Of a stretch of 64,000 nucleotides of DNA, positions 20,201 through 64,000 are shown in pieces. Within the stretch, counting starts at the first letter, position 1. The number at the start of each line of letters is the position of its first letter. The DNA comes from Ulva prolifera (Eukaryota > Chlorophyta > Ulvophyceae > Ulvales > Ulvaceae). A model generated the notes under the pieces. The model saw only the letters and a list, made by a program, of their open reading frames with translations. It was not told the origin of the DNA and searched no databases. The stretch covers positions 496,001-560,000 of the forward strand of contig CM041197.1 of assembly GCA_023078555.1 (NCBI GenBank), given 5' to 3'. The position numbers were made by a program, and so were the translations under genes.

Positions 20201-23200
20201 ATTCTGCGACAGCGGCAAAATCTGCGCAGTCAGCGGCCAGTGCGTGCCGTGCGGCGAGCGGGGCGAGCCCTGCTGCCAGCGCTCCTTCGGTGGGACTCTG
20301 GTATGTTCAGGTGACACTATGTGTGATGCAAACAGCGGCTGCTGCGGGACGACGTCCTGCGATGATGTCGCGTTCGGGTTCCGGCCAGGCGGCCCCCCGC
20401 CGGCCCCGCCCAGCACGCCCCTGCCTGTGGCGTCAGCTCCGCCACCGCAAGGTGTGGCCATCACCTTGCCGGACCCCGCCGATGGCTCCGCAGGGGCAGC
20501 GGCCATTGGGATTGCTCTGGACGCCTGCGGTGTTCTGACCGAGGCAGAATTCAATGTCACTCGGGATCAGGTGCGCCTCTCGAATAACGCTGCAATGGTG
20601 GCCATGTTTGCATCACTTGCATGCGCTCTGTACAAGTTTGTAGGATCACGCACCCTGACCATGAAATGGCGTATTCATGTCCGGAAGCACGTGTGTATGC
20701 ATGTGCCAGGCTCAGCACATAGACATGTTGTTGTGCAGTGCGCCGTGTGGGCACAGATCACGCGTGTGCGGTGCGAGCTCCCGCGTCGATCGAAGTTGTC
20801 ACCGTGATGGCTGTGGCCACTGCCCTGCAGCCAAGCTCCCAGCCCCCTGCGTGTTTCACGGGTCGACTAGCTGCTAGTAGCTGTGCTGCTGTCGTGAGCG
20901 GGGGGCCCTGAAGGCACATCGCCAGCGTCGTAGCGCAGCAGCCTGCACGAGTTGGCTAGTCTTATGACTGCCAGGTTGTCACATGGATCAAAAATCAATT
21001 TCTGACAAAGTATGCTACATGAAGTAGCCTTGACTCATGGTTGGACGCAGCCAGTGACTGAACTGGGCAGCGGCTGTGTGCAGGTGGTGGCGTTCATCGA
21101 TCGCTCCTCCGACGTCAATGCTGCGGGTGTCGCGAACGCCAACGTCTACTACATCATCACCTTCACCTCCGCTCTCCGAGACTTCACTGGCATCTCGTTC
21201 ATCACCAACACCAACCGCGAGGTCTCCCGCCGCGTCCAGCGCTTCGTCTGGCGCGGCGGCATCAGAGGGGAGGAGCGCAGCTTCCCTGCGGCCGCGCTCA
21301 ACGCCCTCGCGGACGGCTTCGAGAGCCTCTCGCGCACAGCCTCGGCCTCTGCCGTCGTGATCACTGCAAGCACGGTGACCACCACGGACAACACGGCCGA
21401 GACGGTAGCAGCGGCCCAGCGCCTGAGGACGAGCGTCACCTCGCTCGTGACCATCTCCGCTATCGCGCTGACGACACGTACGAATGTTGCGCTGCTCGAG
21501 CGCGTGGCGGCGCGGAGTGTGACTGGGCAGCTGCTCGTGTTCCGGACGTCTGTTTTCACACGGGTGGAGTCTCTGCTGATCACGTCCACCTCCACGGCTG
21601 GTGCGGGGCCATTTCACTGACCATTTGTAGTCAAAACTACTCTGTGGCTGTATGGCGTGACAGGAACATACTCTGTATCTGAGACTCATGATCAATGGAG
21701 TCACGTGGCCAAGCCGTGTTAGATGTGTGCGCATGAAGCAGGGCGCAACAAACCATAGCTGGCATGGGCATGCAGGGGGGATTGCCATTGTGATTGCCCT
21801 GGACACATCCTCCGCAGTCTCCGAGGAAGAGTTTCTCACCGCCCGAGCACAGGTGCGCTGCAGCATCGCATGGCACGACAACACATGCACCTGTGCGCGT
21901 GCTGCCGATGTTGTTGACGAGCTGCACTGGCACGTCTATCGGGCTGTTTGGTGCGTGCGGGTGGTCAGGTACACAGATACATCCATGTGGACGCCGCTGC
22001 ATGCATGTGTCAGATTCACGGCAGTGCTTGCTGTGCTTGTGTCAAGCACGTTCAACGACATCTACACCCATGTCTATGATGTGAGTACAAAGCGAGCAGG
22101 GTTGGTAGCACCGCGGGCAACGTCCACGGGAACAGCAAACCAACGCAATCAGCAACACGCAGCACCGTGCATGTGCACGCTGCATCTGTGCCAGGCTTCC
22201 CTGCTTTCGATGCATGCAGTGTTGCACTCCGGCCGCCCCTGCACACACTCTCCGACAATGACGAGTCGCACGCGTTTACTGCCACGCCTCACGTACTCGC
22301 TTTGCATGTTGCAAAGGGCCTTGACCCTCAAGCTTTGACAAGTTTGTGTGTTGTCATGCCAGCCTCTGTCAATTGCAAGATCAGGCTCCTGTTGCATCAA
22401 CTTGCGCCCCCTGCTGTGCCACACGAGCACCGTGGGACACCGGCTTACACAGCAGTGCTCAGTTCACTCCTTCAATCCACGAAGGCAGCACCGCTGTGCA
22501 GCTCATCTCCTTCATAGACAGCTCTTCGGGTGTCAACACTGCAGCCGGCGTCAATCGCAACATCTACTACGTCAACGCCTTCTCCACCGCCGTGCGCATC
22601 TCCACGCGCGTCTTCCTCTCCAACGCTGACCGCCAGGTGTCCCGCCTCATTGAGCAGTTCTTTATCTACCGCGGCGGCAGCATCGACGTCGGCATCAACC
22701 TCGCAGTCGGCATCGACGACCTCACGGCGCAGATCTCCGGCATCACGGTGTCCACCCCGGTGTGTGCATTGGTGGTCGCGGCGGGCTCCTCCTCCCGCAC
22801 CGCCGCCGTCGCCGCGGCAGGCCGCCTCCGCAGCAGCTACGGTGGCGGCGTGTCGATTGGTTGTATCCCGCTTGGGAGCGCATCCAGCGCAAACGTGGCT
22901 ACCCTCGCGGCGATTGCGTCGACCGGCCTCGACGGGGCCACTCTCAGCCGGCGCGCCCCGGCGGTCTCATCCATTGCGGCGCAGTGCGAGGCCGTGCTGC
23001 GCAGCCTCGGTGCGCACCTGCTGCTGCCCGCAAAGTACTACTAGCTAGTAAAAAGGGAAAAACAAGTACTACTAGCTAGTAAAAAGGAAAAGAAGGGACT
23101 ACTAGCTAGGAAAAAGGAAAAAAAAAGGTCTACTAGCTAGTAGCAGAAGATCCGTGGCATCACCGCCTCCTTGCAGTGTGACCTGCGCTCGTTGCCCGTT

Positions 23201-30800: not shown

Positions 30801-33800
30801 TTCGGCGGGAGCCTGTTCTGTTCAGGCGACGTTGTGTGCGATACTGACGTTGGCTGCTGCGGAATGGCGATCTGTGGCGATGTCGATGTGTCATTCGGGT
30901 TCAATGCTCTCACGTTCACACCCAGCATCGATGATGTCACACCCACACCGGTGATGGCCGCTCCAGCGCCACGGGGCGTGACCATCACGTTGCCGGACCC
31001 CGCCAGCGGGTCCGCGGGGGCAGCTGCTATCGGCGTGGCCCTAGACGCCTCCGCTTTCCTGACCGAGGCCGAGTTCAATGCCACCCGGGATCAGGCGCGC
31101 TTCAGATAATCTGGTTGAACTGAATGCATGTGAGGCCCTGCAAAGATGGAGCCTCTACATCATAATTACCTCACTGTGTGTCGAGACGCATTCCGCGCAC
31201 ACAGATATCGCCCCCCACACACGTGTGCATTGGACATACCCTGCGCTTAATTCGACATTATATGGGTGGAGTTACATGCTACAGCGCGTTCGCTGCTAGG
31301 CGCATGCATATGATCAGCACATTGACACGGTACCGGTCAACAAGTTGGTGGGCAGCACGCCATGGGGTCATGCATCATGGCGACATAGTGCCAGCCCCCG
31401 CTTCATAAGGCATTTTCACCGTTTCATTTCACCTCTGCGCATGCGCCCTGCAGTCATGTGCCCGCCCCCCTTCGAAGTTACAGCTGTGCTGCAGTTGAGA
31501 ACAGGCGGACCTTGGAGGCGCAACAACAGCACCAGTCCAGAGCAGCTTGCAGCAGTTGGCTAGGCACTAGGCCTAGCCTGCGATGGATTCCGAAAGTCAT
31601 TGAACACTACTCATAGCAGTCCACGAAGGCTTGAATTGTGACAGGTCCAGCGAGACATGATCACGAGCAGCAGGCATGCCGTGTGTGTGCAGGTTGTGGC
31701 GTTCATCGATCGCTCCTCCGAGGTCACCACAACAGGCGTTGCTAACGCCAATGTCTACTACGTCATGACATTCACCTCCACCCTTGGAGACTCCACCGGC
31801 GTCGCCTTCATCACTAACACCGACCGCCAGGCCTCTCGCCAAGTCCGGAGATTTGGCTGGCGAGGTCGCATCGCCGGGCAGGAGCGCAGCTTCCCAGCTG
31901 CTGCGCTCAACGCCCTCGCGGATCGCTTCGAGAGCTTCTCGCGTCCAGCCTCGGCCTCAGCCGTCGTGGTCTTTGCGAGCGCAGACGCGAGCCCTGAAAA
32001 CTCGGCCGCAACTGACGCAGCGGCCCAGCGCCTGAGGTCAAGCGTACCCTCTTCCGTGTCCATTGCAGGCATCGCGCTGACGTTTCGCACAAACCTTGAG
32101 CTGCTCTCGGTGATTGCCGCGATAAGTGTAACCCGGCAGGCGCTCGCGTCCAGGACTTTCGTGTTCACACGGGTCGAATCGCTGCTGATCACTTCCACAT
32201 CCACAGCCGGTGCGATGCCCTCAACTTGTCATGCATGACAGTATCTGTGTACATTGTGCGAGCTTGTTGTCATTGTATGGAGTGACAGGTGATGCATCCG
32301 CGCCAAGCGCGAGGTGTTTGGTACATCTCTGGCACAGGAATGGATCCACGCCTCCATTTTCAAACTGTGTGGGATATGTGCGTCCATCAAACATATTGCA
32401 ACCTGCTGTGCATGGTCATGCAGGAGGGATCGCCATTGCGATCGCGCTGGACACGTCCTCCGCAGTTTCTGAGGCAGAGTTTCTCATCGCGCGATCCCAG
32501 GTGCGCTGCAGCTTTGCATGGGAAGCGGACTCCGCGTATGCACTTGTACAACGTCGTACATGTACACATGTACTGCGTGTACTACTACGAGCACTACAAG
32601 GATGGTAGGCAGGTGATGCTGTACATTATCAGTGACCCATTGCCGGCTGAACAGTAGGCAAACAGTGTCCAGATGTGTATGAACTGTATGGCGATCGACG
32701 CAGGAGTGGCCGAGTGCTGTACAGCTAACGTGCTGTTTGACAGGGATGTGAACGGTGGTGTTGCACGGTCGACGCGCTGCGACTGTGGACAATGTACACT
32801 TCTGTGCGACGAGTGCGCGAGCTGCCCATTCAATCCTGTGAAATGTTCACGAGTACCTGGATGATGTGCACGTGCAAGTACTTCGGCCTGCATCATGCAG
32901 TGCAAGTGGACCGGCAAGATGCGCTCGTCGTGTACATTCCTCGCGTGCCGTGTTCACGTCCTTAAAAATCGGCACATTACTGACACTCTTTCATGAATAA
33001 TGTGCTCGTCAGGCGTAGGCTACGAGTGCTGTTATACCACAATGATGTACAGTTGGTGCACACGAAATGCGATAGCAGATACCCGGTCATGCGGTCCGTG
33101 TGTAGGCTGCAGCTGCTTAACATGATCTTCTATTGTACGGACAATAGTTAATGCCGATCATATCAGGCCACTCCAGATCTGGCACTAGTGTCCGTGCCGT
33201 CGCACTGGCATCCGCTGAGGTACCCGGCTCTCCGGAACATGGCGCAGTCAACATAGGTATACATTATGTGCACTTACTAACGCTAAACATGCGGAGCAGC
33301 TATGCAAAGTGTTTGGCACGCTGCACAGGCAGCTGCACTGCGCGTGCCAACACGGCATCAGAGTTGTTGACCACGGCACGACGAAACAGCAGCGACACCG
33401 ACAACTAACCAGACAAATTGCTGCTGAATACAGACTGTTGTGCTTGATGCTGTTCTTGAGCAGGGCTGAGCATGCGGATGTGTACACTGTGGACAAGACG
33501 GAACGTACAGCTGCAGATACAATGTCTGCATATGCACGATATCGTGCATCCCCAGTCACAGTGCAGCAAAGTATTGTATTTGTCAGCTGCTACCAGTGCA
33601 GCACATATGTGCATTGTGCCTTCACAGGACAACCGACGGCGTGTGGCCGTACGTAGCAGATCGACGCTGCACGATCACAAGCATTCGACATTATGCTATG
33701 CCTACCGCAAGAGGACTAGCTGTAGATGAGAGAAATGCAATCGACATAACAGTGCCTTGAGCGAATTTTCTCATGCCTGCCGACGTTCACCTGACACTTG

Positions 33801-36800
33801 TCGTCAGCGTTGACCGTCAAATCAATTACTATCGTTGATTAAAACACTGGCTCAATCTTTGATCTTTCCTTTGATGTATACTATGCGCAATAGTGACGAG
33901 CACAACCAGCAGGTCACACTTCCGCGATCAAACCAGTATTGGCGTAACAAAACCACAATGGAGCGCAGTGAGCGCCTCGTTCAGCAAACAGTAATATGCA
34001 GGTAGCAATGTAACACGATTTTCACCTTCGTTGAGTATCATGCTTCTGTTATCGAGTTGACATTTCAGACGACGCCGCGACTCTGCTGCGCACTTGTCGT
34101 GCTTGTGCAGAGTGGTATGCAGCGAAAGCTGTAAGAGGCCTGATAGCATAGTACTCTACAACAATCAAAGACATATAGAGTTGTACATTGTCGTCGCGGA
34201 TCAGGCGAAATGATTCTGGTTTCTGCAAACGTGAACGTCCTACCGCGCCATTTGTAACACGCTGACAGCATCACCTCAAGTACATCGTGTTCGCGGATCT
34301 TGGAATCGAACAACTGATAGATGCAGTATATTTGAAGAACGTGTTGATATCGCAATCTGTCCTAGCGTACAGCAACGGCTCTACGAATTGAGCTGCCAAC
34401 AGCAGGCTACTGATAGCAGGCAACCCGAAACGAGCGAACTAAAACTGAAAACTGAAAAAGGAGCACATCAGCTGAAATGTGCTGTTCGTGTACATTTGCT
34501 AGCAGCTTGCGCGGTCGTGGCGTGGGTCAAACATGTGCTCGACAAGTACACCAGCCACGGAACTGCACACTTCGGTGGAGCGTCGGAGCGCGTTCGTGGA
34601 ATGTACATCATCAGAAGCTGCCGAGTGCTGGACGTGTACATGACGAGCACACGCAGCCTATCAGCTGATGTGCTGTTCGCAGGAGCATGAAAGCGCGTTT
34701 GCGGCATCTGCATTCCACACGTTGAGATGCGCTGCAGGTGCGCACCGCGACACCACGTGGGCAACACATCCCATGTACACGTTTCGAACGCAGTTCACCC
34801 AGTCACGGAATGTGTCTAAAGAGTCCGTGAAATGTGCGCGAATGTGCCGGCGAGCAAAACGAGTGTCGCTAATGTACACGCTGGCGTGCCTACCATCCTT
34901 GTAGTGGAGCCGATGCAGCTTCTGAGCTATGCGTTCCAGGCTGTAGAGCACAGAGGTACAGTTGCTGCACTGTATGCCAATGCTCCATGTGAATGCATGC
35001 GGGTGGTGATCAGACCCAACGATGCTTCCATAACTTGTCGAGAGCGCCGCATATGTGTTCTGGCCCAGTGCCACCGAATTCTGATGTTCCTCATGCTGCC
35101 TGTGACCAGAACGTTCTAGATCTGTGCGCAATGCATGTACTCGTATATGCTATCTTTTTTCCAAGATTTACTGTGTCAAGCTGTAGCTGACCCCCAGGGG
35201 CCATTGACGCTAGTATTTGACACTGACGAACCGCACCTGCTAATACCGATGCTGCCCGATTTGGCTGCACGATTATTAGTGCGCCTCCGCCTTCAAGCTT
35301 GCGCCCGTCTTGGTATTGTGATCCGGGTCAGGAGCGGGTAATATTAGGATGAGGATTAATCCTCCTTGTAGTGCTAGTAGTACACTAGTAATGTAGTAGT
35401 GCACTAGTAATGGAGGTGCCAGCCAGGATCCGCTATAGTTCGGGCATGCTATCAGGCCGCACAGTCATCCAGTCCACTGATGTGCCCCCGGGCCGTTGAC
35501 ATTGACATTGCCACTGTGCAGTTGATATCCTTCATAGATACCTCCTCGGGGGTCGACACAGCAGCCGGCCCCAATCGTAACATCTACTACCTCAACACCT
35601 TCTCCGCCGCTGTCCGCAGCTCCACGAGCGTCTTCCTCTCCAACGCCGAACGCCAAGTTTCCCGCCTCGTTGAGCAGTTCTTTGTTTACCGTGGCGGCAG
35701 CATCGACCTTGCGGTGGCCATCGACGACCTCACGGCGCAGATCTCCAGCCTCACGGTGTCCACCCCGGCGCTCGCGCTGGTCGTCGCGGCGGGCTCCTCC
35801 TCCCGCGCCGCCGCCGTCGCCGCGGCAGACCGCCTCCGCAGCAGCTACGATGGAGGCGTGTCGCTCGGCTGTGTCCCGCTTGGGAGCGTCTCCAGCGAAA
35901 ACGTGGCCACCCTGGCAGCGATTGCGTCGACGGGCCTCGTCCGGTCCTCTCTTAGCCTGCGCGCCCCGTCGCTGTTATCGATCGCGGCGCAGTGCACGTC
36001 TGTCCTTCGCAGCCTCGGTGCGTATCTGCATCAACGAAGCTCATATGATGCGTACACTTCAGCATCAGCGCCCACATGGATTCTGAGCTGCGGTCATCGA
36101 TGGTTTCCTAGCAACAGCAGTGGCACTGGCATCACAGATGATCCTTGGTCGCCGAGGCCAGTTCCGCCACTACCATCGGCCATGGAGAGTGGCGTGCACA
36201 TGGGTCAGGGAAATGCATGATGCCATGCTACAAAGTTTGGCCCTGTCCATGGTCCCATTGCCGCGACTGGCAGATTCACACGCTCTCTGAGACCGGAGAC
36301 AATCTGGTTGCATCGAGGACATCTTGAGCGCCCGACATACTCTGTACACACGCAAGGATACAGATCCATCGTTACGCCAGCCTACACAATGTAGACCTGA
36401 AGCATGCATTTTACACAATTGCTGTTGCATCTGAGCGTGTGGTGGCTGCAGATGCGGATGGAGACGGTACGACAGACACAGTGGACGCGTGCCCGGCAGA
36501 CGCGGCCAAGGTCGAGGCCGGCCGCTGCGGCTGCGGCGCGGCCGAGACGCTCGACTGCGGCGATGTTCCTCGCTGCCAAGGCAGCCTTGTTATTGGCATC
36601 ACATTTGGCATGTTTTCACCGGCCAGCTTTGATGCAGCAAAGGAACAGGTACGCACCCGCTGCGGCTGTTACAGGTGCACACAATCCACTCTCATCAATT
36701 GCACTACACTTACTCAGACACGCAGCGCCTGCGTCAGTGTGAATATCAAGCTGTTTGTGGATTGCCCGCACATTCAGCACATCATGTACACCCATGCCAC

Positions 36801-44374: not shown

Positions 44375-45892
44375 AGCTGTTGTTTCAAAACAATCTACAC
44401 CTCAGTGAAATCGAATGTAAGAAAAACTGCTCTATGCAGCTGTATGTAGGCAAGGCAGGTCTCTGTACATGGTAGCTGTGATGCACCTATCAGTGTGAGC
44501 GCTTCCTGCAAAATTTGTCCACGGAGATGCTCCATTGTTGTCTGCACCTGAATGTGGTGAACAATATGCTGTCGAGGTCATGTATGCACCAGCAGCCCAC
44601 CCTGCTGCCCTGCGGCATGCAGATATAGAATGAAGAACTCCGTGCCAAAGAAACATAGGCACGGTCACAAAGTCCAACGCCACCAGATGCATGCTTTGCT
44701 GGCCGATTCCCATTTCAGATACGGCGGCCTGAGGCTGTTAGCATCGAGTGGAAGCAAAACCTCTGAGCCGTTACGGAATCAAGGCTGAATTGGCAGCCTG
44801 GCATGCGAGAGGTTTGAAAGTGGCCTGCAGTGTGCAGCAGGAAGCTGAAGCCTTGCCTAAACGACAATGGCATGTTCACCCTTACATGGTGCTATCACAG
44901 CATGAGGCTCCCCGGCAGCACAGCACTCTACAGACTCGGCTGGAGACGAGTCGATCAAACACTCCAGTAGACCAAAGTATCTGTAACAAGGAGACGCGTA
45001 CCGTAGCCAAGAACAGCTGTAGGCTTCTCGCCACTTGCTGGTCACACGATTCAGGCACAAGAAGCAGCCGGTGACGTAGAACACGATAGCTCTGAGCTAT
45101 GTAGAGTGTTCGTCAATGTATACTCGCTGCTTGACGACAACCCGCAGACGAGGCATCGCGGGGGCTCCAGAGTTTGGCCAAGATGTCTACAGTACACGAG
45201 AAAGCAGAGACACACAGGTCTTCATACAGCTGTGATTACGTGCATTCATGGAGGGACATGGGCTGGGAAAGGAAGGACTGCTGGGAACGGATCCGGATAA
45301 ATGTCTTTGTCTGCAGCTGAGGCGACGCGCTCGGCTAGGCAAACGAAAAAACATGACACGGAGACATCTTTTGAATAGAGGCATGGATATATGGGGTGCG
45401 TGTGCTACAGAAACGCTGTGGGTCCTTGCGTGAACTCGCCTTTTTGACCTGGGAAACGGGGGGGCTCGACGTGAAGAATACGATCGAGACCACATTGTAC
45501 ATCAGTGTGTGGCTACTACGTTGTCATCACTTTCACTTAGCTTGCAGAGTTGGTCAGCGCGAAGGTGACGTCTTCACCGAGCTATCTCGGAAATGTCTTT
45601 TTCGTCGAGGCCACAGGTGCACTCAATGGCCACGGCCCTCGATGCAATTACCACACAAGGTCGAGACAAATCGGAGATCCAGTTCCTGTATTTATGGATT
45701 TTGACGCATCTCGGGTATGCGAATGCATCTGTCAACGCGCGTCACAGCTTAGTGCCCAGCTGCAGCCGTGTTGCCTCACCTCGCGGTACAGCAGTCATGG
45801 CGAGAGTCGACAAACCGTCACACCATCACATACAAACATGTTGTGCCCCCGTGCTGGCCACGGACCGTTCTTCATAGGCGGGGAGTGCGGAC
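44375..45892. other. spacer between G1 and G2
   Basis: TGTAA at 44416. Otherwise no feature is supported, and no clear similarity to the later spacers. Confidence 0.45.
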
Positions 45893-46007
45893 ATGTCGGT
45901 CGAGGTCTGGGGAAGAGGTCCGCAGCACCGAGTGAGACTGCCCGGATGTGGCCACACTGCGCCTAAAGGATGTCTGACGAATCTGAAATCAATCTGTCCA
46001 ACGTGTG
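45893..46007 (+). CDS. G2 first exon
   Basis: 115 bp to a GT donor; G3 and G4 have the same length to the same point. Encodes MSVEVWGRGPQHRVRLPGCG, then HT and SICPTCG. The HRxRLPGCGH and CxxCG pairs suggest a zinc ribbon or RING-like site. Confidence 0.62.
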
Positions 46008-49000
46008 GTGCAACGTTGCCGTACCCCGGCACTGCCAAAGCAGACTGCGTCCCCTCTACGCACTGCACCTGGCCTGAATCGTTCCGTGTCGTCAGCAGGA
46101 AACTCAAGGAAGATCAAAGCGATGGTGCTTCAGTACGCCCTTCTATCAAATGGCTGTCGCAGCTGCCGTTTTCCATTATGGGAGCTCTCGCTCCAAGGCT
46201 TCTGTTGTGGACTCGCTCTGGGACAGCTACCTGAGTTCAGCAACGCACGCCATATCTTCCATCGGAGTTAGTGCTTGCATATATAGTCTATTGTTGCTTA
46301 TGCCGAAGGCAAGAGTGCAACCTGGATTTATCTGTCGACACATGTTGCACAGATTCAAACGCACAGCTTTTTGTGAGATGTGCATCTGGGGATCACCATT
46401 CCGGATATACTGACACAATGTTCTCCACGGTTGCTGTAGATTCTACTACTGGCAGGTAATCTGCATCGCAAACACCAAATATCCTGCATGTTTCTTGGCG
46501 TTCAGTAGGTGCAATCCAGGATCTCCCATAGCGTGAACATGGGGCCTTTGAATGTTGAGGTTCTTTTGCACCCAGGTGCATGACATCATTTCACAGGGCT
46601 AGCCAAGGTCATGCTTGCTGTCTTGATGATGGTTCTGTGCCTTGCGAGCATGAGTTGTACACGTGTGCATCCGCTTGTCATTCACATTGTCAGAGTTCAC
46701 CTTCTACGTCTCCGCCCTGTCTCCTGGTAGACGACTTCAAACAGATACCAGCACTCTGTGCATGTATGCAGGGACTCGGACTGTCTCTTGAGGAATTCGT
46801 TTGGAGGGTGTGTGCAGCATGGTGCAAGGCGCTTGATCTGACATCACACACCGTTTTGTCCTCGGGCACATCAATCCGCACCCGAGTTGACCGACCCGAG
46901 TTCATCGTCTGTAGAGCATCACCTCGAGGATGCCGAGTTCTATCTGGGGCGGTCGTGTTGCCGGAGGGTGGCGTGCTGCTTCTCGAGGGACATGGCGCAC
47001 AGTTCCACAGGACTCGATTCATAGGTACAGCTCCGATACTTCTTCGCGTAGGCATCATCATGAGGTGGCATGTCAGTGAATGTATGCCGCTGCAGCACTT
47101 TACGACTACCTGCATCTGAAGCACATTTTTGACAGCACGTTTTTGCCAGCTAGTAGGACTCTCACTCATCTCTGCAGGGGGGGCGGTCATGTGCACTGGG
47201 GCCACCTGCTCAGTGCTTTTCCTTGAGTGCACCTTCAGTAACTGCACAGTCGGCGCCACCCATGGCGCGTCCGTTACGCTGCGGCGCTGCCACGTGCTCG
47301 ACAGTCAGCCGGGCGCCGTCGCCAGCGGCCCCGGCACCGTCGCCGCCTTCGAGGCCTGCACGTTTGTCCGATGCTTCAACAGCATCATCGTCGAGGGCGG
47401 CGCGTCTGCGAGCGTCTGCGGCGCGCACATATCCGGCACCTCCGTGGCCATGGCTGTCAGTGATGATAGCTCCCGAGGCACTGTCACCGACAGCCACCTG
47501 CAGAGCGCTCCGCCAACCTCGACTGGAAATGCACAGGAGCGTATGTGGGGTGTCTTTGTCTTTGGGGGGTCCGTGTGCATCACGCACTGCCACCTGCTGG
47601 ACTTCTTCACAGGAGTTGGTGTCGGGACTGGGGCCACTGTCGCCGACATCCACATCCAGCAGTGCCGCATCACCGGCAGCTGTGGCGTGGCGCTCGGCGG
47701 CCGTGTGCGGGGGTGCCTACGGATGTGCCACATCAATGGCACTGCCAAACTGCACCGCACCATGGCTGCGCTTAAGTCGTTCGAGAGTGGCGACTCCCAG
47801 TGTGATGTGCCTGAACCTGCGGTAGTCGCAAGTGGCGACACGGCGTCTCTGTTGCAGATGCAGCGGTGCAACATCGCCGCGGAGGCCGGGGCTTGGATCA
47901 GCCGCGGCAGTCGAGCCACAGCGTCGCTGTGCAAGCTGGTGTGCAGAGCTACTGCGGTGCAGGTGAACGACTGCAGCCGCGTGCATCTGGCACAGTGTTG
48001 GGCGTCCAGTGCGGGTGACTGCTGTGCTGCTGATTCAGAGTCCTCATGCCGGCTCACCATTCGGCGTTGCAGACTCTTCGGCTCTGAATGTGCGTGCTGG
48101 GCCCGTGGACGGGCGCACGTATCTGCGGACGACACGGTGATGAAAAGTCGCCGTTTTTCACAGAGCCATCACAACATCTGTGTGGTTCAAGCTGATGCCA
48201 AGGCGGTTGTACACCTGCTCCGGTGCTGCATTCTCGATGGCACTATCGGAGTGGCCATGACCCATGCCACAGTTGACTCCCGGGATACTCGGGTGATGAA
48301 TCTGTCAGATCGATCCATGCATGAACAGAAACATCCTGACGTGCCTGGCATGGATTCCTGGCGACGTGGGTATTCACTGACTGGAGGCCGACTCACGGTG
48401 TCGGGTGGCTCTGTCCAAGGCTGCTACACTGGGTTGATGGTTGGTGCAAACAAAGATTCGGGGGGGGAGGTGGTCGCCCTGTCCGACCTGCCGAGGTGGT
48501 CGCCCTGTCCGACCTCTGCTGTTGATGTGCGTGGCGTGGTCTTTTGGGGGTACGTCCAAGCGATTCGGGTGGGTGCCGATTGCGACGTAGCTGTGGAGCT
48601 GTGCCACTTTCATGATGGTGTGCGCAAGACGGAGTCCGCTGCGCATGCTCGATATGATGCGGCAGGCGGCGCTGTTTCACACCGTCACTGCGGAGTTGCT
48701 CTGATGGACACCGACCGGATTCTGCTGAGGAGATGCACGTTTAACAGCACGCAGACTCGCGAGGACCCGTGCGGTGTTTACGCCGCACGCGTCACAGGCC
48801 TGCAGATCCAAGAGTGTACGTTTGAATTCTCCAATCCAACAGGGGACAGTGTTGAGCTGCTGGACTGTGTGGGTGCTGTCATCGAGGACTGCACATTTGC
48901 TGGCGCAAACAGTGGTGTCTTGAGCTCCAGCAGCCGGGCTGTTGTCCAGCGCAGCAGCTTCGGGAAGGCATTGTGTTGTGGCGTCACCGCCGGCAACAGC

Positions 49001-49912
49001 AGCAGGATTCTGCTGCAGAAGTGCTTGTTTACAAAGTGCGCGTGGGGGGTGGTGGTCGAGGAGCAGAGTGAGGTGACAGCCCATGAGTGTGCCATGGTGC
49101 AAGTGCAGCGGGCTGTGACGGTGGAAGACACCGGTGGGGTGTTCACGTGCTGCAAGTCCCGGCTGGAGGGGGGCTCGGTCCTGGTGGAGGCGGAGCGCCA
49201 GTACCGCGGGCAGGCCACGGCAGACCTGAGGTTCACCGACTGCCAGTTCTCTGATGCGGGGATGGGGCTGCGGGTGTGGGGCACCGGGGCGGCTGCGACA
49301 CTGCAGCGGTGCAGCATCAGCGGCTGCGACGTGGGGCTGTACATGGCGGACGAGGTGGCGGTGTGCATGACTGACTGCACCGTCGTCAAGTGTGACTTGG
49401 GCGTGTTGGTGGGGCTCCACCAGTTGGACGCAATGGAGCAGTGTCGTTTTTGTCGCAAAGAGGGCATGCATGCATGGGCCACAGCCAGGCAGCACTTGAG
49501 CGCGGCCAAGAACACAGCTACAAGCTTGCGGAATTTGAAGCGATGTGTCCATGAGGGCGCTGTGGCGCGGCTTCGGTTGGAGGGGATGGAAGTGTGGCGC
49601 TGCAGGCAAGGTGTGCGTGTGTTTGAGTTTGGGCTCCTCGAAGCGCAGGGGCTGCGGCTGCATAAGTGCGCTCAGGCTGTGGCTGTGGCACACATTTGGC
49701 GGCACAGCGGCGAGTGCAGCACGTTCAGGGGCTGTTTAGCCATTGCGTGCGGTGCTGGTGGCAATGTGATGCGGGTGTGGCCTCGAGGCGTGAAGCACGA
49801 GGAAGGCTGCATTGAGAGAGAAATTCATGGCCTGGTGCTTCAGCGAAGAGGGGGCGATCCGGCCGTCTTGCTGCAGAGCGGCCCCTCACAGGGTAAAAAG
49901 TACAATGGGTAA
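45893..49912 (+). CDS. G2: right-handed beta-helix protein with N-terminal Cys/His motif
   Basis: Recognised exons: 45893-46007, 46772-47024, 47178-49912. The first starts MSVEVWGRGPQHRVRLPGCG and ends at CPTCG|GTGCAA in phase 1. The second begins in phase 0, so one small exon between them is still missing or a boundary is misplaced. The terminal exon gives 910 residues of beta-helix. No signal peptide. It shares a highly conserved stretch with G3 and G4 (about 49060-49440). TGTAA follows at 50103. Confidence 0.8.
46772..47024 (+). CDS. G2 internal exon: cap of the beta-helix
   Basis: 253 bp, phase 0 to 1, acceptor TATGCAG, donor GTACAG. GLGLSLEEFVWRVCAAW, then FIVCRASPRGCRVLSG and LPEGGVLLLEGHGAQFHR. 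Confidence 0.75.
47178..49912 (+). CDS. G2 terminal exon: main beta-helix region
   Basis: Starts GAVMCTGATCSVLFLECTFS. Rungs include CHVLDSQPGAVASGPGTVAA and VEGGASASVCGAHISG. The Cys/His block is CRFCRKEGMHAW (about 49440) and RCVHEGAVARLRLEG (about 49540). Long antisense frames (for instance 48677-49705) are composition shadows. Confidence 0.86.
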
Positions 49913-51289
49913 GGCGAACCAGGCTCCGCAAGCACACGGGCGCATCTGACTCAGAGCCACTGTGGCAGAGCATGTGACTTGAGTTGCATTTTTTCCCTGG
50001 TTTTCTACGGACCACGGTGCTGCCCCCAAACAGACCGGCACTTTGGGGACAATCAGTGCAGGTTGTTCTAGACCTGGTTGCCCTCGGAAGCATGTGGTGT
50101 CTTGTAAAGTGCTACGCTGCCTGCTCTGCGAGAGTCCATGTGAAAGGGACTGGCAATCAAACTAAGGCGTGTGCCCAGGAGCATGCACGGTCACATAATT
50201 TTTCAGCTGCATGTATTTGTATGTCTGCCCCCGGAGAACCGGTCACTTGCTGGTGATGTGCACCGCTAGCAAGCACAGCAGCACAGGCTGGCACCCGCCG
50301 GACAGTCAGCAGACCCTGTAGCAGGACCACAGCGATTGTTGTACATGTTCTTGCAGAACCAGGAATAGCAACGCCCGGCTGCCCCACCTGCAAGGCATAG
50401 TGATGATGCATAGTGATTGTGACGAATGGCAAGGCCTTCTTGAAGTGCGTGCTTTTTGCGGGGGACGCCGGGTGCGGCTACGGCGCAGCGCGGCCGTGGC
50501 CGTGCTGGTTGGTGTTGGGTGGTGCGGGGGCAACGGATTGGGCGGCCATGTATGAGGCTGCATCAGCAGAGCATGCCGTAAGGGGGTGTGGGTGGGTGGG
50601 GAGATCAATTGACACATATGTGTGTGGGTGGGTGTGCGATTTTGCGTACATGGGTGCGGCCACACGGGCCGGCCCCTGCGGCCGCCTTTTGCCGGGAGGA
50701 TGGTACATAAGTGTTGTGTGGTTGTGATGGCTTGCTGCAGTTCGGCGCTTGGTGACAGGTGTGATGTGGCCTGGCTGCCCTTCAGTGCTGCGGGGCACCT
50801 GTGATGCTACCTGCCTTCCCGAAGAATGGCCTTCCTCCTGGCCATCCTAGAGGATCCTCCAGCAGCACACACACCCACCAAAACATCTATCATAGCCGTG
50901 CCAGGGGCGGGCAAATCCGACACTGTCGTATGTACATGAGGGCTGCCTGAAGGCTGCAAGGAGCCGCAGCCCACACATATTCTGCCATGCAGCAGATATA
51001 CTGCAGTGCAGCACTCGTGTGTGCGTGTGAATGTATTCATCTGGGTGCTTCGGGGCTCCCCTTGCCCGGCACGGATTGCTCCGCATTGTGGTGATGATGA
51101 TTGGATCCTGACTCTGTATGAGATGCTGTTCTTTGCTCGGGTGTCGTGTATGGCTATTCCTGTTCTTGTACTGCAAGCTCTTCCTGCGGTGCTACCTGCC
51201 TGGTGACTTTCCCTGGAAAACAGTATGCTCGCAGCATAGCTTTGCCCCCCCTTCCCTCCCCCCCCCCAGAGTCACAGCACCCGACACGC

Positions 51290-51545
51290 ACAGCCGAGTA
51301 GATTTCCACCAGAGTGCAGTGTATGCGCAATATGATGCGTTACATGGAACCGTACCATAGCCGAGACGAGCTGCAGTTTTTTTGTCATTGGCTGGCCATG
51401 GCGTCCAGGCACACTGAGCAGCACGCCATATGCAACTCACCAGCTGAGTTTCGGAGCAGTGGACATCAAGCCGCGCAAGGGAATAGCCGGGATCTTCGAT
51501 GAGCTGTTGTTGCTTGGCGACGTCCGCCCGGTGGCAGAATCGTTA
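51290..51545 (+). pseudogene. coding-like remnant in G2-G3 spacer
   Basis: VDFHQSAVYAQYDALHG (51300 on) and LSFGAVDIKPRKGIAGIFDE with LLLLGDVRPVAESLEL (51445 on) read like protein. The related segment at 57600-57845 keeps NFHQTALDAQHDA and VGLGGVQVK / AGIVDALSSLGDVGPEAAS in shifted frames. No family recognised. Confidence 0.35.
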
Positions 51546-52181
51546 GAGCTCGCGAGTGCTGTCTAGATGTGTTATCTCCGCAGCCGACAGCAGACATAGC
51601 ATATGATACGTTGTACAGTACCTTCAGCCTGGACAGTTGTATATATATTTAGGGAGCTGTGAATCAAAACGACGCGAAATTCACGGATAAACACCTACGC
51701 GAGTCGAGGTGATTTCGACTTTAACACACTTATGTGGGGCTTCTAGTGCATATATGGGTTGCTATCAAGGCAGATACGGTGTTGTCCTGGCGCATATGCG
51801 CAAGTGCGTTCTACGTTGGTCAGGCATGGCAAACGCTCGTCGAGGACCAACTTCCTATTCTACGGCGAAATATATAGTTCACTCACCTACAGCTGTATTG
51901 TCATCGCGACGATGCGTTCAGGTTTCTGTCTTCGTGCGAGACGACGACCATCTGGAACACTGTGGCGTGGAGGCTCTCTCATGACGTTAACGGGACACCT
52001 GATAGCCACAACGCACCATTGCCGCACCATGATAGTTAGAAAGTACCCATGACGTGACTTTTAAAGAAATTTGGTCAAATATCATCGTTCAGCAACTCGT
52101 GATTTAGGTCGGGCACCGGTACCAGGCGCGGGCAGCTTCTGCCACAATTCATACGGCTCAAACACTCATCGCCGCAGTCGT

Positions 52182-52197
52182 GAAAGCGCTATACAGT
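52182..52197 (+). promoter_or_regulatory. conserved 16-bp box upstream of G3
   Basis: GAAAGCGCTATACAGT ends 67 bp before the G3 ATG; an identical box ends 65 bp before the G4 ATG. A TATAA follows at 52223-52227 in G3. Candidate core promoter element or duplicated relic. Confidence 0.5.
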
Positions 52198-52263
52198 CAT
52201 ATATGTACCCAAATCTCCCCCTTATAAGCATTCTTTCGTGCCTCAAAGTCGAGAAGTGCGACC

Positions 52264-52378
52264 ATGTCATTCGAGGTCTGGGGAAGAGGTCGGAAGCACC
52301 GAGTGAGGCTGCCTGGATGTGGCCACACTGCGTCCATAATCTCTTCTACTGATGGAGTTCTGAAATGTCCAGAGTGCG
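52264..52378 (+). CDS. G3 first exon
   Basis: 115 bp. MSFEVWGRGRKHRVRLPGCG, then HTASIISS and KCPECG before GTATAT. Start chosen because MSxEVW is the first residue block shared by all copies. Confidence 0.65.
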
Positions 52379-55300
52379 GTATATCATCGTCGCACACAGC
52401 CCCTGCCAAATCAGTCCACGCAGAACACCTGGCCCGATTGTTCTCTCATCACCATCCGGAAAGTCGAAGAGGGGCGAACTAATGATGCTGCAGTGAGTTT
52501 TGCGTCTAGTAGAGTTGCCGAAGCTGCCATTGACAGTGGTTGGCGGGACTTCCCAGACTTCCCAGGTATCATTATTGACTCTCTCCAACACTGACGTCGA
52601 ACCTCAGCAGCTCTGCTTCAGTGTCGGTTGTCGGCATCATATTGATGACAATTGCGTTCAGCTGCTCTCGTACGAAAGCCTGCTTTTCAGAATTGCCAAG
52701 GTTCAATGTAACTTGATCTGTCGTTCGCAAGCTCTTGCAGTGTTGTATCTGCTACCCAAATGTAAACACATGCACGACCAAGCGGCCTCGCCGGAAAGGC
52801 TTCTTCAAGTACAAATTAGTACAGTGTGCTTGTGTGCAGGGTCTTGGACTCCCTGTCAAGAATTTTGTTTGGAAGATTTGTACAGCATGGGATAGTGTAG
52901 TTGATCTGATGTCGCAGACATTTTCGTCCTCGGCAATGGCGATCTGCACCGAACCCGCTTTCATTGTCTGCCGAGCGTCGCCTCGCGGATGCCGAGTTCT
53001 GTCTGGATCCATCATGTTGCCGGAGGATGGAGTACTGCTGCTTGATGAATGTGGCGCACAATTCCACCGGACTCAATTCACAGGTGCACCTCTGTGCTCT
53101 CCTCACGGAGGCATGTTCTGTCACGTCGGTGAACATTTGATGCCGCAAAGCAGCACGACTGGTTGTGTTTGGGGTACAGCTTGACTGACATTCCGTCACT
53201 TACGCTGTTCCTTAGTGCAATTTCAAGTATGGGCTGATTCCTGTGCTGCTCGCATGTGTTCATTGCTGCTGTGCAAGATCAGTCTGTGGGCCACACCATC
53301 AGCATTCACACACATTGCATGTGGCACAATTAATCTTGATTACCAGGCCGCATGCAGCGCATTGCTGCAGCAGCTTCCGGACTGAATTGGACATCAGTCA
53401 CAATCAAACATTCACCAATGTTCTGGCATGAGCACTCCTGCTTTGGCCTACCTATCACTCTGCAGTGTGACATGTGATTATCCTGGACAACTTGACTCGT
53501 GTGGTGTTCCTCATGCCGGCATGCGGCTCTCCAATGGGGCAACAGCCTGAGGAAGCCAGTCCAGTGGGTGCAGGGACGTGTGTCCTCATCCCGGCATGCT
53601 AGGTCTGATCATCTGGTCGGCCTTGCCCTACATGTTGGTCACAGCTGGCATCATGTACCCATGTCATGCCTGGCATGATAGCGTACGCCAACATGAGTAG
53701 ATACCCCGCACCGCGCGATGTATAGAACATGCAGCACTCAATCTTGGAGTGAACGGGGATGGGCGGTGTGATCAAGTGTATTGACTCTGCGAAATGACCA
53801 GCTGCTGCAGTGGCCTATTCTCTGCCGTCTGTAGATGAGACAGCTATGGCTGCCTTTGACCGCAGCATGCCTTGAGCATGGGTCTCACAGTCACCACAAC
53901 TCTGCAGGTGGGACCGTCGTCTGTGCCGGGGCCACATGCGAAGTGCTCTTCATCGGGTGCACCTTCCAGGGCTGCACCGTCTGCGTCGCCCACGGCGCGT
54001 CCGCCACGCTGCGCCGCTGCCACGTGCTCGACAGCCAGCCCGGCGCCGTCGCCAGCGGCCCCGGCACCGTCGCCACCTTTGACGCCTGCATCTTCGCCCG
54101 TCGCTTCAATTCTATCATCGTCGAGGGCGGCGCGTCTGTGAGCGTCTGCGGGGCGGACATCACCGGGACCACCGTGGCTATGGCCGTGAATGACATCGGC
54201 TCGCGCGGCATGATCACCGCCAGCCGCCTGCAGAGCGCACCTCCGCAGCTCAGTGGACTTGTACCGGAATATGCGTGGGGTGTTCTTGTCTTTGGGGGCT
54301 CTGCGTTCCTCACGCGCTGCGACCTGCTGGACTTTTGCACAGGAGTTCATGCGATGACTAAGGACGAAGTCGCCCACCTCCACATTCATCAGTGCCGCAT
54401 CACCGGCGGCTGTGGCGTTGCGCTTGGCGGCCGTGTGCGGGGATGCATGCGATCGTGTCATGTGGAAGACACCAGGCCGTTCGGTGTGCCTGTATTGCGG
54501 GTGAAGTCTGTCATTGATAATCGCCTCCTCGGAGAAGCGCCTAAACATGAAGCTGCAGTCATGGTCAACGGAGAGCATGGAACTTCTTCGGAGATGGAGC
54601 GGTGCCGCATCAGTGCAAAGGTCTGCGCTGCCCAGATTGGCGGCGCAAGCAGGGTCGCAGCCTCTCTGTGCAGGCTGGTGAGCAAAGCGAGGGCGTTGAG
54701 CGTAGGAGGCGACGGCCGCGGAGTTCTATCTTGTTGCTGGGCATCAGCGGGAAAATCCTGCGTGTACGTCAAGTCGACATCAAACTTCTTGTGCAGGCTC
54801 ACCATCCTCCACTGCAGTCTCATCGGCAATCATTTCTCATGCTTCGGAGTGGGACCGGTTCGCGTGACGGTGGCAGACACTACAATGAAGTGTCACTTCG
54901 CCACACAGACAACCCCTCGCCACGGCGGGGTAGAATGCATAGTGCATTCTGGATTTGACACGCATGTGCGCCTGCAGAGGTGCTGCCTGCGCGACGGCAC
55001 AACAGGGGTATGTGTGAACGGTGGGACAGTGGACTCGCGGGACACGCGGGTGATGAACATGTCGTGCCCACATGCAATGGAAGGGGTCGCTCTTGGCAGG
55101 CCTGGCGATGCAAGCTCTCCGGGGTGTGGATATGCGCTATCTGGCGGCCAGCTGAGTGTGTCAGGCGGATCTGTGCAGGGATGCTGGGCTGGAGTGATGG
55201 GATCGGCATTCATTGGGGGGGATGAAGGGATCGTGGCCCCTCCCAGCCTGCCGTGCGTGGTTGATGTGCGTGGTGTAGCTTTTGCGGGATACGGGCATGC

Positions 55301-56660
55301 GCTGTTTGTGACCCACGGGTGTGAGGTAGTTGCAGAGGGGTGCTGGTTTCTTGGTGGTAAGTACAAGGCGCGTCCTGGAGCGAGTTGTGTGGGAGCCACG
55401 TCGGGAGATCTCCGGGCGGTTGTGCTGCTGCAGGCAAGCCTCACACGGTTGCGGGGGTGCTCGTTTTCTGGTGCTTGGACACCTGGGGTGTCATCTGGCA
55501 TTCAAGCTGTGCACATGACCGGCCTGCACATCCGGGCGTGTGAGTTTGAGTACCCCGATCCCACAGCCAATTGTGTTGAGGCGACTGACTGTTCAAGTTC
55601 TGTCATCGAGGACTGCATGTTTGCCGGCGCATGTGCGGGCGTTGTGGCCAAGAGCAGCCGGGGCTCGGTCCAGCGCAGCAGCTTCGGCGAGGCCATGTCC
55701 CGTGGCATTGCTGCCCGCAACAGCAGCTGGTTGTTAGTGCGGGAGTGCGAGTTTACAAAGTGTGTGCGGGGGGTGGTGGTACGGGAGGGTAGTGAGGTGA
55801 CGGCCCATGAGTGTGCCATGGTGCAAGTGCAGCGGGCTGTGATGGTGGAAGACACCGGTGGGGTGTTCACGTGCTGCAAGTCCCGGCTGGAGGGGGGCTC
55901 GGTCCTGGTGGAGGCGGAGCGCCAGTACTGCGGGCAGGCCACGGCAGACCTGAGGTTCACCGACTGCCACTTCTCTGATGCGGGGATGGGGCTGCGGGTG
56001 TGGGGCACTGGGGCAGCTGCGACGCTGCAGCGGTGCACCATCAGCAACTGCGACGTGGGGCTGTACATGGCGGACGAGGTGGCGGTGTGCATGACTGACT
56101 GCACCGTGGACAAGTGCGAGTTGGACATGGTTGTGGGGCTGCATCAGCTGGATGCGATGGATCAGTGTGGGCACTGTCGCCAGGAGGGGGTGCATGCATG
56201 GGACGCAGCCAGGACACAACTATGCGCGGCCAGATCGAGAGCACCGGGCGGTACGAATCAAAGGCGCTGTGTCCATGAGGGCGCTGTGGCGCGGCTTCGG
56301 GTGGAGGGGACGGATGTGCGGCACTGCCGGCAGGGCGTGCGCGTGTTTGAGTTTGGGCTGCTGGACGCGGAGGGGCTGCGGCTGCACAAGTGCGGCCAGG
56401 CGGCAGCCGTCGCGCACATCTGGCGGCACAGCGGCGAGTGCAGTGTGTTCAGGGACTGTTTGGCCATAGCGTGCGGTGCTGGTCCCAATGTGGTGCGGGT
56501 GTGGCCTCGGGGAGTGAAGGACGAGGCAGGCTGCACTGAGAGTGACATCTCTGGCCTGGTGATCCAGGATGGAGAGGATGAACCGGCTGTGTTGGCTGCG
56601 CCGCTGGACACACCGCTGCAGCAGGGCGACACCCCACAGCGTGAGACGTTTGGTGGCTAG
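52264..56660 (+). CDS. G3: right-handed beta-helix protein with N-terminal Cys/His motif
   Basis: Recognised exons: 52264-52378, 52840-53083, 53908-56660. The first starts MSFEVWGRGRKHRVRLPGCG and ends after CPECG|GTATAT. Past that donor, alignment with G4 contains a 5-bp gap that breaks the frame, which supports an intron there. The terminal exon adds 916 residues. Gene structure and spacing repeat G2 and G4. TGTAA at 56919. No signal peptide. Confidence 0.82.
52840..53083 (+). CDS. G3 internal exon: cap of the beta-helix
   Basis: 244 bp, phase 0 to 1, acceptor TGTGCAG, donor GTGCAC; GLGLPVKNFVWKICTAW, FIVCRASPRGCRVLSG, LPEDGVLLLDECGAQFHR. Confidence 0.78.
53908..56660 (+). CDS. G3 terminal exon: main beta-helix region
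   Basis: GTVVCAGATCEVLFIGCTFQ opens the exon. CHVLDSQPGAVASGPGTVAT is nearly identical to G2. The Cys/His block is CGHCRQEGVHAW (about 56165) and RCVHEGAVARLRVEG (about 56265). The tail ends QRETFGG and TAG. Confidence 0.87.
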
Positions 56661-57599
56661 GGGCGAGCCAGGCGCAGGTGACGCCCAGGCACACGCCCAG
56701 GCACCTCGCTGTGGAAGGTACTTCATGTGCGTCAAGCTACACATCCTTGCCCTTGAGCATCCACGCACTGGAAGCCACTATGCTGCGCTTAGTGGTTCCA
56801 AGTAGCACATCCGGGGACGTATAGGTAGAGTCTGCATGATTCTTCAGACCTTCACGCACTGTACAGCCTGTTCAGTCTGGTGAATTCGCTGGGCTTGCTG
56901 CACCTGTCGCGGTGGCTATGTAAGGGGCTGCATCAGCAGAGCCTGTGACGAGGGTGCTTACATGTGCGGGTGGGTGGGTGGTTTGGTGTATGGTTACGGT
57001 CGTATAGGCCGGCCCATGCGCCTATCTTTTTGGCTGCGGGGAGAAAGGTACAGAAGTGTTTGCTTGGATGCGGTGTTGTGTGGTTGTCATGGCTTGCTGC
57101 GGTTCCGAACTGGGTGACAGAGGTCGTATGTCTTGACTGTGCTTCGGTTGCCCCAGTGCTGCCCGCCTCTGCGAGTTGACTCCTGATGACTCAAACAACC
57201 ACGGAAACACCTATCACAGCCGTGATAGAGGCAAACCAAACCGACACTGTATGTAAGAAGGCTGTCTGGTGGCTGCAACAGGCCGCGGCGCGCACAATGA
57301 ACTGCCACGCAGCAGATATACCGCTGTGCAGCTCGCGTGTGGCCATGTGTTGGTGTATGTATGCGTGTGGGTCTTTTGGGGCTCCCGTTGCATGGTTCGG
57401 GTGGTTTCGCATTGCAGTGATGCTGATGCATTGCTTTCTCTGCAAGAGATGCTGTTTGTTGCCTTGGGGGTCGTGTGTTGCTGATCCTATCCTTGTACTG
57501 CATGCCGTTCCTGTGGTGCTAGTCCTTGACACACAGTTCTACAGGTCTCAGGGCACACGTTCGCGAGCCCACCCACATCACAGCATTCTGCTTGTGCAG

Positions 57600-57845
57600 T
57601 CAAATTAAACTTCCACCAGACTGCATTGGATGCGCAGCATGATGCGGCGTAAAGAGACGAGCCGAGGCGCAGCTTTTCTGCCATTGGCTGGTCACGATGA
57701 CCAGGCACACTGAGCAGCACGTGATACGAAGCTCACCAGGTGGGGTTGGGAGGGGTTCAAGTCAAGGGTGCCCCAGAGACCAGCCGGGATCGTCGATGCG
57801 CTGTCGTCGCTTGGGGACGTCGGCCCAGAGGCAGCATCGTCGGGG
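57600..57845 (+). pseudogene. coding-like remnant in G3-G4 spacer
   Basis: Counterpart of 51290-51545; the frame is broken (NFHQTALDAQHDA then stop; VGLGGVQVK and PAGIVDALSSLGDVG in different frames). Confidence 0.3.
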
Positions 57846-58490
57846 CTCGCGAAGGCTTCCCAGATGTTTCATATCCACAAGTGACAGCAAAAAGAATACA
57901 CGAGACGCTGGACGGTATCTGCAGCGCCGAACAGCTTGATATACCGAGTCAAGTGAGCTGCGAATTGAATCGATCCCAGGTGCACGGCTAAAAGCCTACG
58001 CGATAAGAGACGAATCTGACACTTGAAGATCGTGCTGGAGCTTCACATGCGTACATAGGTCGCTATTAAGCCAGATACGGTGTTGCCATGGACGAACGCG
58101 GAAGTGCGTTTCCGGTAGGTCTGGCATGGCATCGCCCGTCGTGAATGAAACGTCATATGTAGCGACAAATATTGCAAACTCGCATGCGGCTGTGACTACA
58201 TCGCCGCGACGCCATCATTTTTCTGTCTCTGAGCGAGAAGATGACCACCTGGAAGCGTGTGGCGTGGGGATTCTTTCACGATGATAACGGGACACCTGAT
58301 AGCCTCAGACCACAACGCAGTTGCCGCACCATGGATGTGCAGACACAACCCGAGACATGAATCCTCATATAAAGCAAAAGGCGCCAAGGTCACATGTCAT
58401 CATTCAGTAACCCGTTATTTTGCTTAGGCACCAGGAGCGGGCCACTGCTGCCACACTCGACAGGGCTCAACTACTCACGGTCGCAATCGG

Positions 58491-58506
58491 GAAAGCGCTA
58501 TACAGT
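58491..58506 (+). promoter_or_regulatory. conserved 16-bp box upstream of G4
   Basis: GAAAGCGCTATACAGT, identical to the box before G3 and at nearly the same distance from the ATG (65 versus 67 bp). The bases on either side differ more. Confidence 0.5.
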
Positions 58507-58570
58507 TATCTGTGATTCAGTGTCTTCTTCTACAACAATCTTTCGTGCCCCATAGTCGAGGAGTGCGGCC

Positions 58571-58685
58571 ATGTCATACGAGGTCTGGGGAAGAGGTCGG
58601 AAGCACCGAATGAGACTGCCTGGATGTGGCCACACTGTGTCCATAATTCCTTCAACAGGCCGCAATTTAAGTTGTTCAAAGTGTG
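58571..58685 (+). CDS. G4 first exon
   Basis: 115 bp; MSYEVWGRGRKHRMRLPGCG, HTVSIIPS and SCSKCG before GTATAT. Same length and donor position as in G2 and G3. Confidence 0.65.
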
Positions 58686-63066: not shown

Positions 63067-64000
63067 GGTAAGCCAGGCACAGGGACAGGTAGATGGCCAG
63101 GCATGTGGGTACTTCACTCTGGGAGCTGCTTGGAATGTAGCAAGACTGGTACCATTTGCCTTGGATATTCATAGACCACGAAGCTGCCTTGAAATATACA
63201 AAATGAGACGAGTCCTTATGATCTGTCCGTGGACACACACATATGGCACATGTGGAGACACATAGTGTAGGTGTTCAGGAATTTGAAGCTCTCTGGAAAC
63301 TTGCAGTGGCAAGCAGTATACATCTGCATGAACGAACAGAACTGCAACGTCCAACTTTATTTTAGTCGCAAGCCTCATGTACATAAGCTCTTCAGAATAT
63401 TCGTCTAAAAACATTTTGTGATCTGGCGAATGGTCAGCGGCTGAGTGTGTCGAGTGCTGTGCGGAGGGAAGAAATTGGAAGAGCTTGGTTCCAGCAGGGC
63501 CGTGCCATGACAGAGTTGCAGACCTGGCGTCACAAACGACATCAGATGCAAATATAATACCTCGCACTCGTTCAGTGCCTAGGCTCTTGAGATCATATGT
63601 GTGATACAGACACAGTCAAACAGGCAGTCAGCTTCGCAGGCACCGCGACTGAACACATCACACTCCAAACGCAGCCAGTCACTGAGGATCAAGAGGGCCT
63701 GATTTTTGTCGGCGACGGGCCTATACACAATGTCTACATACATGTGTGGCGGTCGCAGGCCGAATGCAACGGGGTCGCAGGGACTCCTGAGCCCCATATC
63801 GGGTGATTCATGCAACTCATGTAGGCTAGCCATGCCGTACTACCTAGATGTTTGATGCTGACTGGCCTGCGCCAAAGCCACGTCAGTCTCCCCCTTCAGC
63901 ATCGATATCATAACCGTCATTAACTTCATTTGAAATTCTGCGACTGCCAGTGTCCCTGGCTGCCGACGCCTCCCTCAGCTACTACGCAGAACGCAGCTGC
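63067..64000. other. 3' flank of G4
   Basis: The first 60 bp or so resemble the sequence after G3 (AAGCCAGGCACAGGGACAGG against GAGCCAGGCGCAGGTGACGC). No gene is supported in the rest. Confidence 0.5.

What the first reader, a model, noticed from the sequence alone, without database searches (positions are those of the whole stretch)
32592..34906. Complete non-autonomous CACTA element with 3-bp TSD inside an intron
Both ends carry the same 20-bp inverted repeat beginning CACTACAAGG, flanked by GAG/GAG. Subterminal TGTACA motifs recur at both ends. The element explains why intron 5 of VWA-B is 3.0 kb while the VWA-A intron is 0.65 kb, so it inserted after the tandem duplication.
Basis: partly seen in the sequence, partly recalled or inferred. 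Interest (0 to 1): 0.72.

Follow-up and report, generated by a model that had tools for sequence, protein, structure and literature searches.

The report
Young non-autonomous CACTA transposon in intron
A 2.3-kb piece of jumping DNA of the well-known CACTA type, apparently in a green seaweed of the Ulva group, has recently landed in an intron; it makes no transposase of its own and is probably moved by larger relatives in the same genome.

Summary
Window 32592-34906 (2315 bp) has perfect 20-bp inverted ends, a GAG/GAG duplication and 12 TGTACA motifs (about 1.3-1.4 expected). The 88.9-Mb genome (plastocyanin 98/98 identical to PDB 7PCY, so probably Ulva) yielded ten full-length copies differing by 0.29% on average; nine have a 3-bp TSD and one a 4-bp TSD. 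For 5 of 16 copies or relatives tested, the flanks with one TSD copy removed match uninterrupted satellite units, giving empty sites with these boundaries. Of 15 facing end-pairs 11.9-25.7 kb apart, 14 enclose a weak, sub-threshold DUF4218 match; in the two compared in detail it lies in a multi-exon gene, the likely transposase. The host intron is 3021 bp against 649 bp in the paralogue, and the insert explains 2318 bp. Insertion after the gene duplication is supported by copy identity only, because the two introns cannot be aligned. This is an ordinary CACTA family that I did not find described for Ulva.

The parts
32589..32591 (+). left target-site duplication GAG
32592..34906 (+). complete non-autonomous CACTA-type element, 2315 bp
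   Evidence: 20-bp perfect TIRs, TSD, ten full-length genomic copies
32592..32611 (+). left terminal inverted repeat CACTACAAGGATGGTAGGCA
34887..34906 (-). right terminal inverted repeat, exact inverse of the left
34907..34909 (+). right target-site duplication GAG
32620..33051 (.). left subterminal TGTACA cluster: sites start at 32620, 32718, 32793, 32931, 33046
34489..34878 (.). right subterminal TGTACA cluster: sites start at 34489, 34602, 34635, 34774, 34873
32592..33224 (+). left module, 91% identical to the corresponding end of the 12.6-kb element at C2:8656722
33221..34652 (+). internal body, 83-84% identical to the body of another short family (L039-L041) that has different termini
34639..34906 (+). 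right module, 78-81% identical to the other end of the 12.6-kb element
32501..35521 (+). host intron of the VWA-B gene (GT..AG), 3021 bp with the insert
   Evidence: a VWA domain was found in another exon of the gene
21853..22501 (+). corresponding intron of VWA-A, 649 bp, without an insert

Best explanation
The element is a recently active, non-autonomous CACTA (En/Spm-type) DNA transposon. Transposase made by larger elements with the same 20-bp ends (about 12-13 kb where uninterrupted) recognises the tips, cuts the 2.3-kb element out and inserts it at a staggered cut, which leaves a 3-bp duplication. The TGTACA sites, one of them at a fixed distance of 29 bp from each tip, probably act as subterminal binding sites for the transposase or for a second element-encoded protein. 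Here the element landed in an intron of one of two tandem VWA genes after their duplication and left the intron's splice sites in place. Shown: ends, TSD, copies, empty sites of other copies, and long elements with shared ends and a candidate transposase gene. Inferred: mobilisation in trans, and the role of TGTACA.
For: Perfect 20-bp TIR and GAG TSD. Ten full-length copies, mean pairwise substitution 0.29%, maximum 0.86%; the window copy has one private base. TSDs: 9 of 10 short copies 3 bp, 1 of 10 4 bp; of 11 related elements 10 have 3 bp and 1 none. Empty sites for 5 of 16 joined flanks, 60/60 identical across the junction for four and 58/60 for one. Of 15 facing TIR pairs 11.9-25.7 kb apart, 14 contain a DUF4218-like match; over all 27 pairs 14 of 60 such matches fall inside, with 0.17 expected. 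In two long elements compared in detail the match lies in a multi-exon + strand gene whose eight main exon blocks are 55-89% identical in protein. DUF4218 in its exon: E 0.0013 and 0.001. No sign of coding capacity in the 2.3-kb element: its longest open frame, 151 aa, is reached in 149 of 500 simulations.
Against: Every DUF4218 match is below Pfam's cut-off. Transposase_21, the usual CACTA transposase domain, was not found by hmmscan or in the genome (where the 14 controls were silent too, so that call says little). The DDE triad was not established. The TSD of one copy (L005) is 4 bp. L038, an older-looking relative, has none. No transposition was observed, no strain without the insertion was available, and the window copy itself had no matching empty site among the loci held.
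Confidence: 0.93

Rival explanations
1. The ends belong to another superfamily of the same CMC clade (Chapaev or Mirage; grouping recalled) and only resemble CACTA.
For: Transposase_21 was not detected, and one copy has a 4-bp TSD, the size that I recall for Chapaev.
Against: 19 of 21 elements examined have 3-bp TSDs, the ends begin CACTA, and the DUF4218-like match is to a domain reported for plant CACTA transposases (PMC8978399, passages).
Confidence: 0.04
2. The element is a plain internal-deletion derivative of a 12-13 kb element, as dSpm is of Spm.
For: Both ends resemble those of the long elements: 91% over 633 bp on the left and 81% over 246 bp on the right.
Against: The 1.4-kb middle finds no match in the four long elements compared, but is 83-84% identical to the middle of a second short family and 80-85% to L038.
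Confidence: 0.12
3. The VWA-A intron lost an ancestral copy of the element, so the insertion predates the duplication.
For: The introns are too diverged to show an empty site in VWA-A.
Against: The window copy differs by only 1-14 positions from the nine others, while the two genes are 74-86% identical in alignable blocks.
Confidence: 0.02

Closest known systems
En/Spm of maize and its defective derivatives (dSpm)
   Same: CACTA ends, 3-bp TSD, repeated subterminal motifs, non-autonomous copies beside autonomous ones (PMC2613891 and PMC4158355, passages).
   Different: Motif TGTACA instead of the 12-bp En-1 motif; TIR is 20 bp; the short element looks mosaic, not like a simple deletion.
Tgmt*/Tgm elements of soybean
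   Same: Large CACTA element inserted in an intron, 3-bp duplication, subterminal repeats (PMC2613891, passages).
   Different: Tgmt* is a 20.5-kb putative autonomous element with a 13-bp imperfect TIR; the subterminal motif was not compared letter by letter.
Idaten of Volvox carteri (cited as the algal CACTA precedent)
   Same: A CACTA-type element in a green alga, cited as such in PMC4158355 (passage and reference-list entry).
   Different: The Idaten paper is not held, so its sequence was not compared; Volvox belongs to another class of green algae (recalled).
Jozin CACTA elements of Chenopodium
   Same: Transposase ORF with DUF4218; tandem repeats inside CACTA elements are reported there (PMC8978399, passages).
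   Different: Jozin has a detectable Transposase_21 domain; here none reached threshold.

Membership tests
CACTA (En/Spm) superfamily | terminal inverted repeats beginning CACTA/CACTG | tested here: met
   20 of 20 bp, CACTACAAGG... at both ends
CACTA (En/Spm) superfamily | 3-bp target-site duplication | tested here: met
   GAG here; 19 of 21 elements examined have 3 bp, 1 has 4 bp, 1 none
CACTA (En/Spm) superfamily | empty sites holding one TSD copy | tested here: met
   5 of 16 joined flanks matched uninterrupted satellite units in loci held; the window copy itself had none
CACTA (En/Spm) superfamily | repeated subterminal motif | tested here: met
   TGTACA 12 observed, about 1.3-1.4 expected; exactly 29 bp from the tip at 17 of 24 ends of 12 related elements
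CACTA (En/Spm) superfamily | autonomous partner with Transposase_21/tnp2 domain | tested here: inconclusive
   no Transposase_21 match; the 14 controls were silent too; DUF4218 below cut-off
CACTA (En/Spm) superfamily | DDE catalytic triad | not tested
   the candidate transposase is split over exons; no reference transposase sequence was compared
CACTA (En/Spm) superfamily | transposition shown in vivo | not testable with these tools
   needs strains or excision assays

The most novel reading that the evidence does not exclude
The short family arose by recombination that gave an older non-autonomous body new termini, those of a currently active autonomous lineage, and so changed which transposase moves it. 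The alignment borders coincide: on the left, the match to the long element ends at position 633 and the match to the L039-L041 body starts at 630; on the right, the body match ends at 2061 and the match to the long element starts at 2048.
Probability: 0.35. Interest if true: 0.45.

Novelty: new member of a known kind. Interest (0 to 1): 0.27.

Why it matters
It gives a bounded, young, apparently recently active DNA transposon family in what is probably Ulva, a bloom-forming seaweed. It comes with long relatives that could supply transposase and with clean empty sites. That would serve transposon tagging, strain markers and gene annotation. The mosaic short family offers a testable case of a non-autonomous element changing its mobilising partner. 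The insertion itself appears to be an ordinary intron insertion.

Tried and rejected
Direct empty site in VWA-A: the introns do not align well outside the exons, so only length and copy age bear on the timing. Transposase_21 genome search: no match and silent controls, so uninformative. Coding capacity or gene capture in the 2.3-kb element: the longest frame is no longer than chance gives, and its three longest frames had no Pfam match above cut-off, the best E being 0.16. The 49 genome matches were not each examined, so gene capture is not excluded. Pattern CACTACAAGG alone: 208 sites against 264 for the reversed control, so the 10-mer by itself means nothing; the 20-mer does. A further CACTACAAGG site at window 35364-35373, in the same intron, is therefore not taken as an element end. 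The automatic TSD script found no end pair for L038-L041 and L044; L038-L041 were redone with set coordinates, and L044 has no TSD result. Structure prediction was not tried, since the candidate transposase exists only as a hand-spliced sequence, which by its description that tool does not take. Literature: 'EnSpm' + 'Ulva' + 'transposable elements' gave 0 papers; 'Ulva' + 'CACTA' gave 2, neither about Ulva CACTA elements by its listing; the wider searches were seen as listings.

Full report
What is there. The element at 32592-34906 is 2315 bp long, with 50.8% GC against 57.7% in the whole window. Its two ends are exact inverse copies over 20 bp, and GAG flanks it on both sides.

Organism. The window lies at C2:496001-560000 of an unnamed 88.9-Mb genome in 44 contigs. 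Its plastocyanin, joined from two exons, is identical over 98 of 98 residues to PDB 7PCY. The listing names only 'plastocyanin'; I recall 7PCY as the protein of Enteromorpha (now Ulva) prolifera. A close sister species cannot be told apart by this.

A young family. The genome search returned 49 matches, a lower bound because 40 of 80 candidates were scored. Ten run from end to end and are 2309-2315 bp long. Their mean pairwise substitution divergence is 0.29% (0-0.86%); the window copy has one private base. The 20-bp end with at most two mismatches occurs 99 times, 41 of them exact; the reversed control occurs 0 times.

Target sites. Nine of the ten have a 3-bp duplication; L005 has 4 bp, TCCT. 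Of eleven other elements with related ends, ten have 3 bp and L038 has none. Sixteen joined flanks, with one copy of the duplication removed, were compared with the loci already held, not with the whole genome. Five matched uninterrupted sequence with at least 60 bases on each side: L003, L005, L006 and the long elements at C10:500138 and C2:12335784; the other eleven, the window copy among them, did not. The 60 bases across the junction were identical for four and 58 of 60 for the fifth, with no gap, in the best matches. All five match repeatedly within and between their own surroundings, as satellite arrays do; tandem units of about 180 bp and 160/179/339 bp were shown around L003 and L006. 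So at least three of the ten short copies lie in satellites; the other seven were not checked with a tandem-repeat search.

Who moves it. Pairing adjacent facing ends less than 30 kb apart gives 27 pairs. Fifteen are 11.9-25.7 kb long, and 14 of these contain a DUF4218-like match; 0.17 of the 60 matches would be expected inside all 27 pairs by coverage. The 60 matches all lie below Pfam's cut-off, 46 of them lie outside these pairs, and one of 14 control genomes also gave a sub-threshold match. In the elements at C2:8656722 and C10:500138 the match lies in a multi-exon gene whose frames are conserved between the two; E is 0.0013 and 0.001 for that exon. DUF4218 is reported beside Transposase_21 in plant CACTA transposases (PMC8978399, passages). 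Transposase_21 itself was not detected. A second, minus-strand gene in the long elements has no Pfam match. I infer that the + strand gene is the transposase and that the short element depends on it.

Subterminal motif. TGTACA occurs 12 times, against 1.28 expected from the rest of the window and 1.43 from an order-1 model. In 12 related elements it starts exactly 29 bp from the tip at 17 of 24 ends. At several of the other ends a one-base variant stands at that place; in C4_8030 one motif is shifted to 37. These elements are related, so the ends are not independent. In C2_8656, C3_9264 and C2_12333 one of the two ends holds only one or two TGTACA within 500 bp, so the fixed position is the stronger regularity. 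In maize, TNPA binds subterminal repeats (PMC2613891, passages). A like role here is inference.

Host gene. The two genes match in eight collinear blocks of 74-86% identity. Two of four frames scanned, one from each gene, have a VWA domain above Pfam's cut-off; the two frames next to this intron had no match. The intron is 3021 bp with the insert and 649 bp without, GT..AG in both. Element plus TSD account for 2318 of the 2372 bp difference. Because the copies are so alike and the genes so diverged, the insertion came after the duplication.

Mosaic origin. Against the long element at C2:8656722 the left 633 bp are 91% identical and the right 246 bp 81%, with no match in the middle. The middle, from 630 to 2061, is 83-84% identical to that of L039, L040 and L041, whose own ends, where they align, are about 72-81% similar to those of the window element. 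L039 and L040 are near-copies of each other, so these loci should not be counted as independent families. L038, whose ends found no match to the window element beyond the tips, carries the same body at 80-85%, interrupted. A second long/short pair exists: L037 (2588 bp) shares 97.5% over 526 bp with one end of the C10:500138 element and 79.6% over 373 bp with the other. The shared borders suggest exchange of ends. Uneven rates of divergence and soft alignment borders remain possible.

Verdict. An ordinary, well-bounded, young CACTA family with an interesting mosaic history. In the searches I found no description of CACTA elements in Ulva; the library lacks most subscription journals.

Noticed in passing
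L003, L005, L006, L035-L036, L045-L046: At least three of ten short copies and two long elements sit inside satellite arrays (about 180-bp units on C10; 160/179/339-bp units near the end of C2). This may reflect target preference or shelter from selection.
   Followed up: partly
G000:C2:10965654-11062374: Five copies of the variant end CACTACAAGAATTGTAGGCA in the same orientation, about 24 kb apart, which suggests a large tandem segmental repeat.
   Followed up: no
L031-L036 and L045-L046 (long elements): Internal tandem repeats of about 344 bp downstream of the candidate transposase gene, in differing copy numbers.
   Followed up: no
L031:2522-4090, minus strand: A second conserved minus-strand gene in the long elements without any Pfam match; candidate for the DNA-binding partner protein.
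   Followed up: partly
L042: A 6.3-kb element that reads as a relative of the 2.3-kb element (91-92% identical) split near position 155 by about 4 kb of other sequence.
   Followed up: no
window 4501-5469: Tandem repeat with a unit of about 174 bp.
   Followed up: no
window 45866-63086: Three similar blocks in tandem, about 74-89% identical, looking like a gene array.
   Followed up: no
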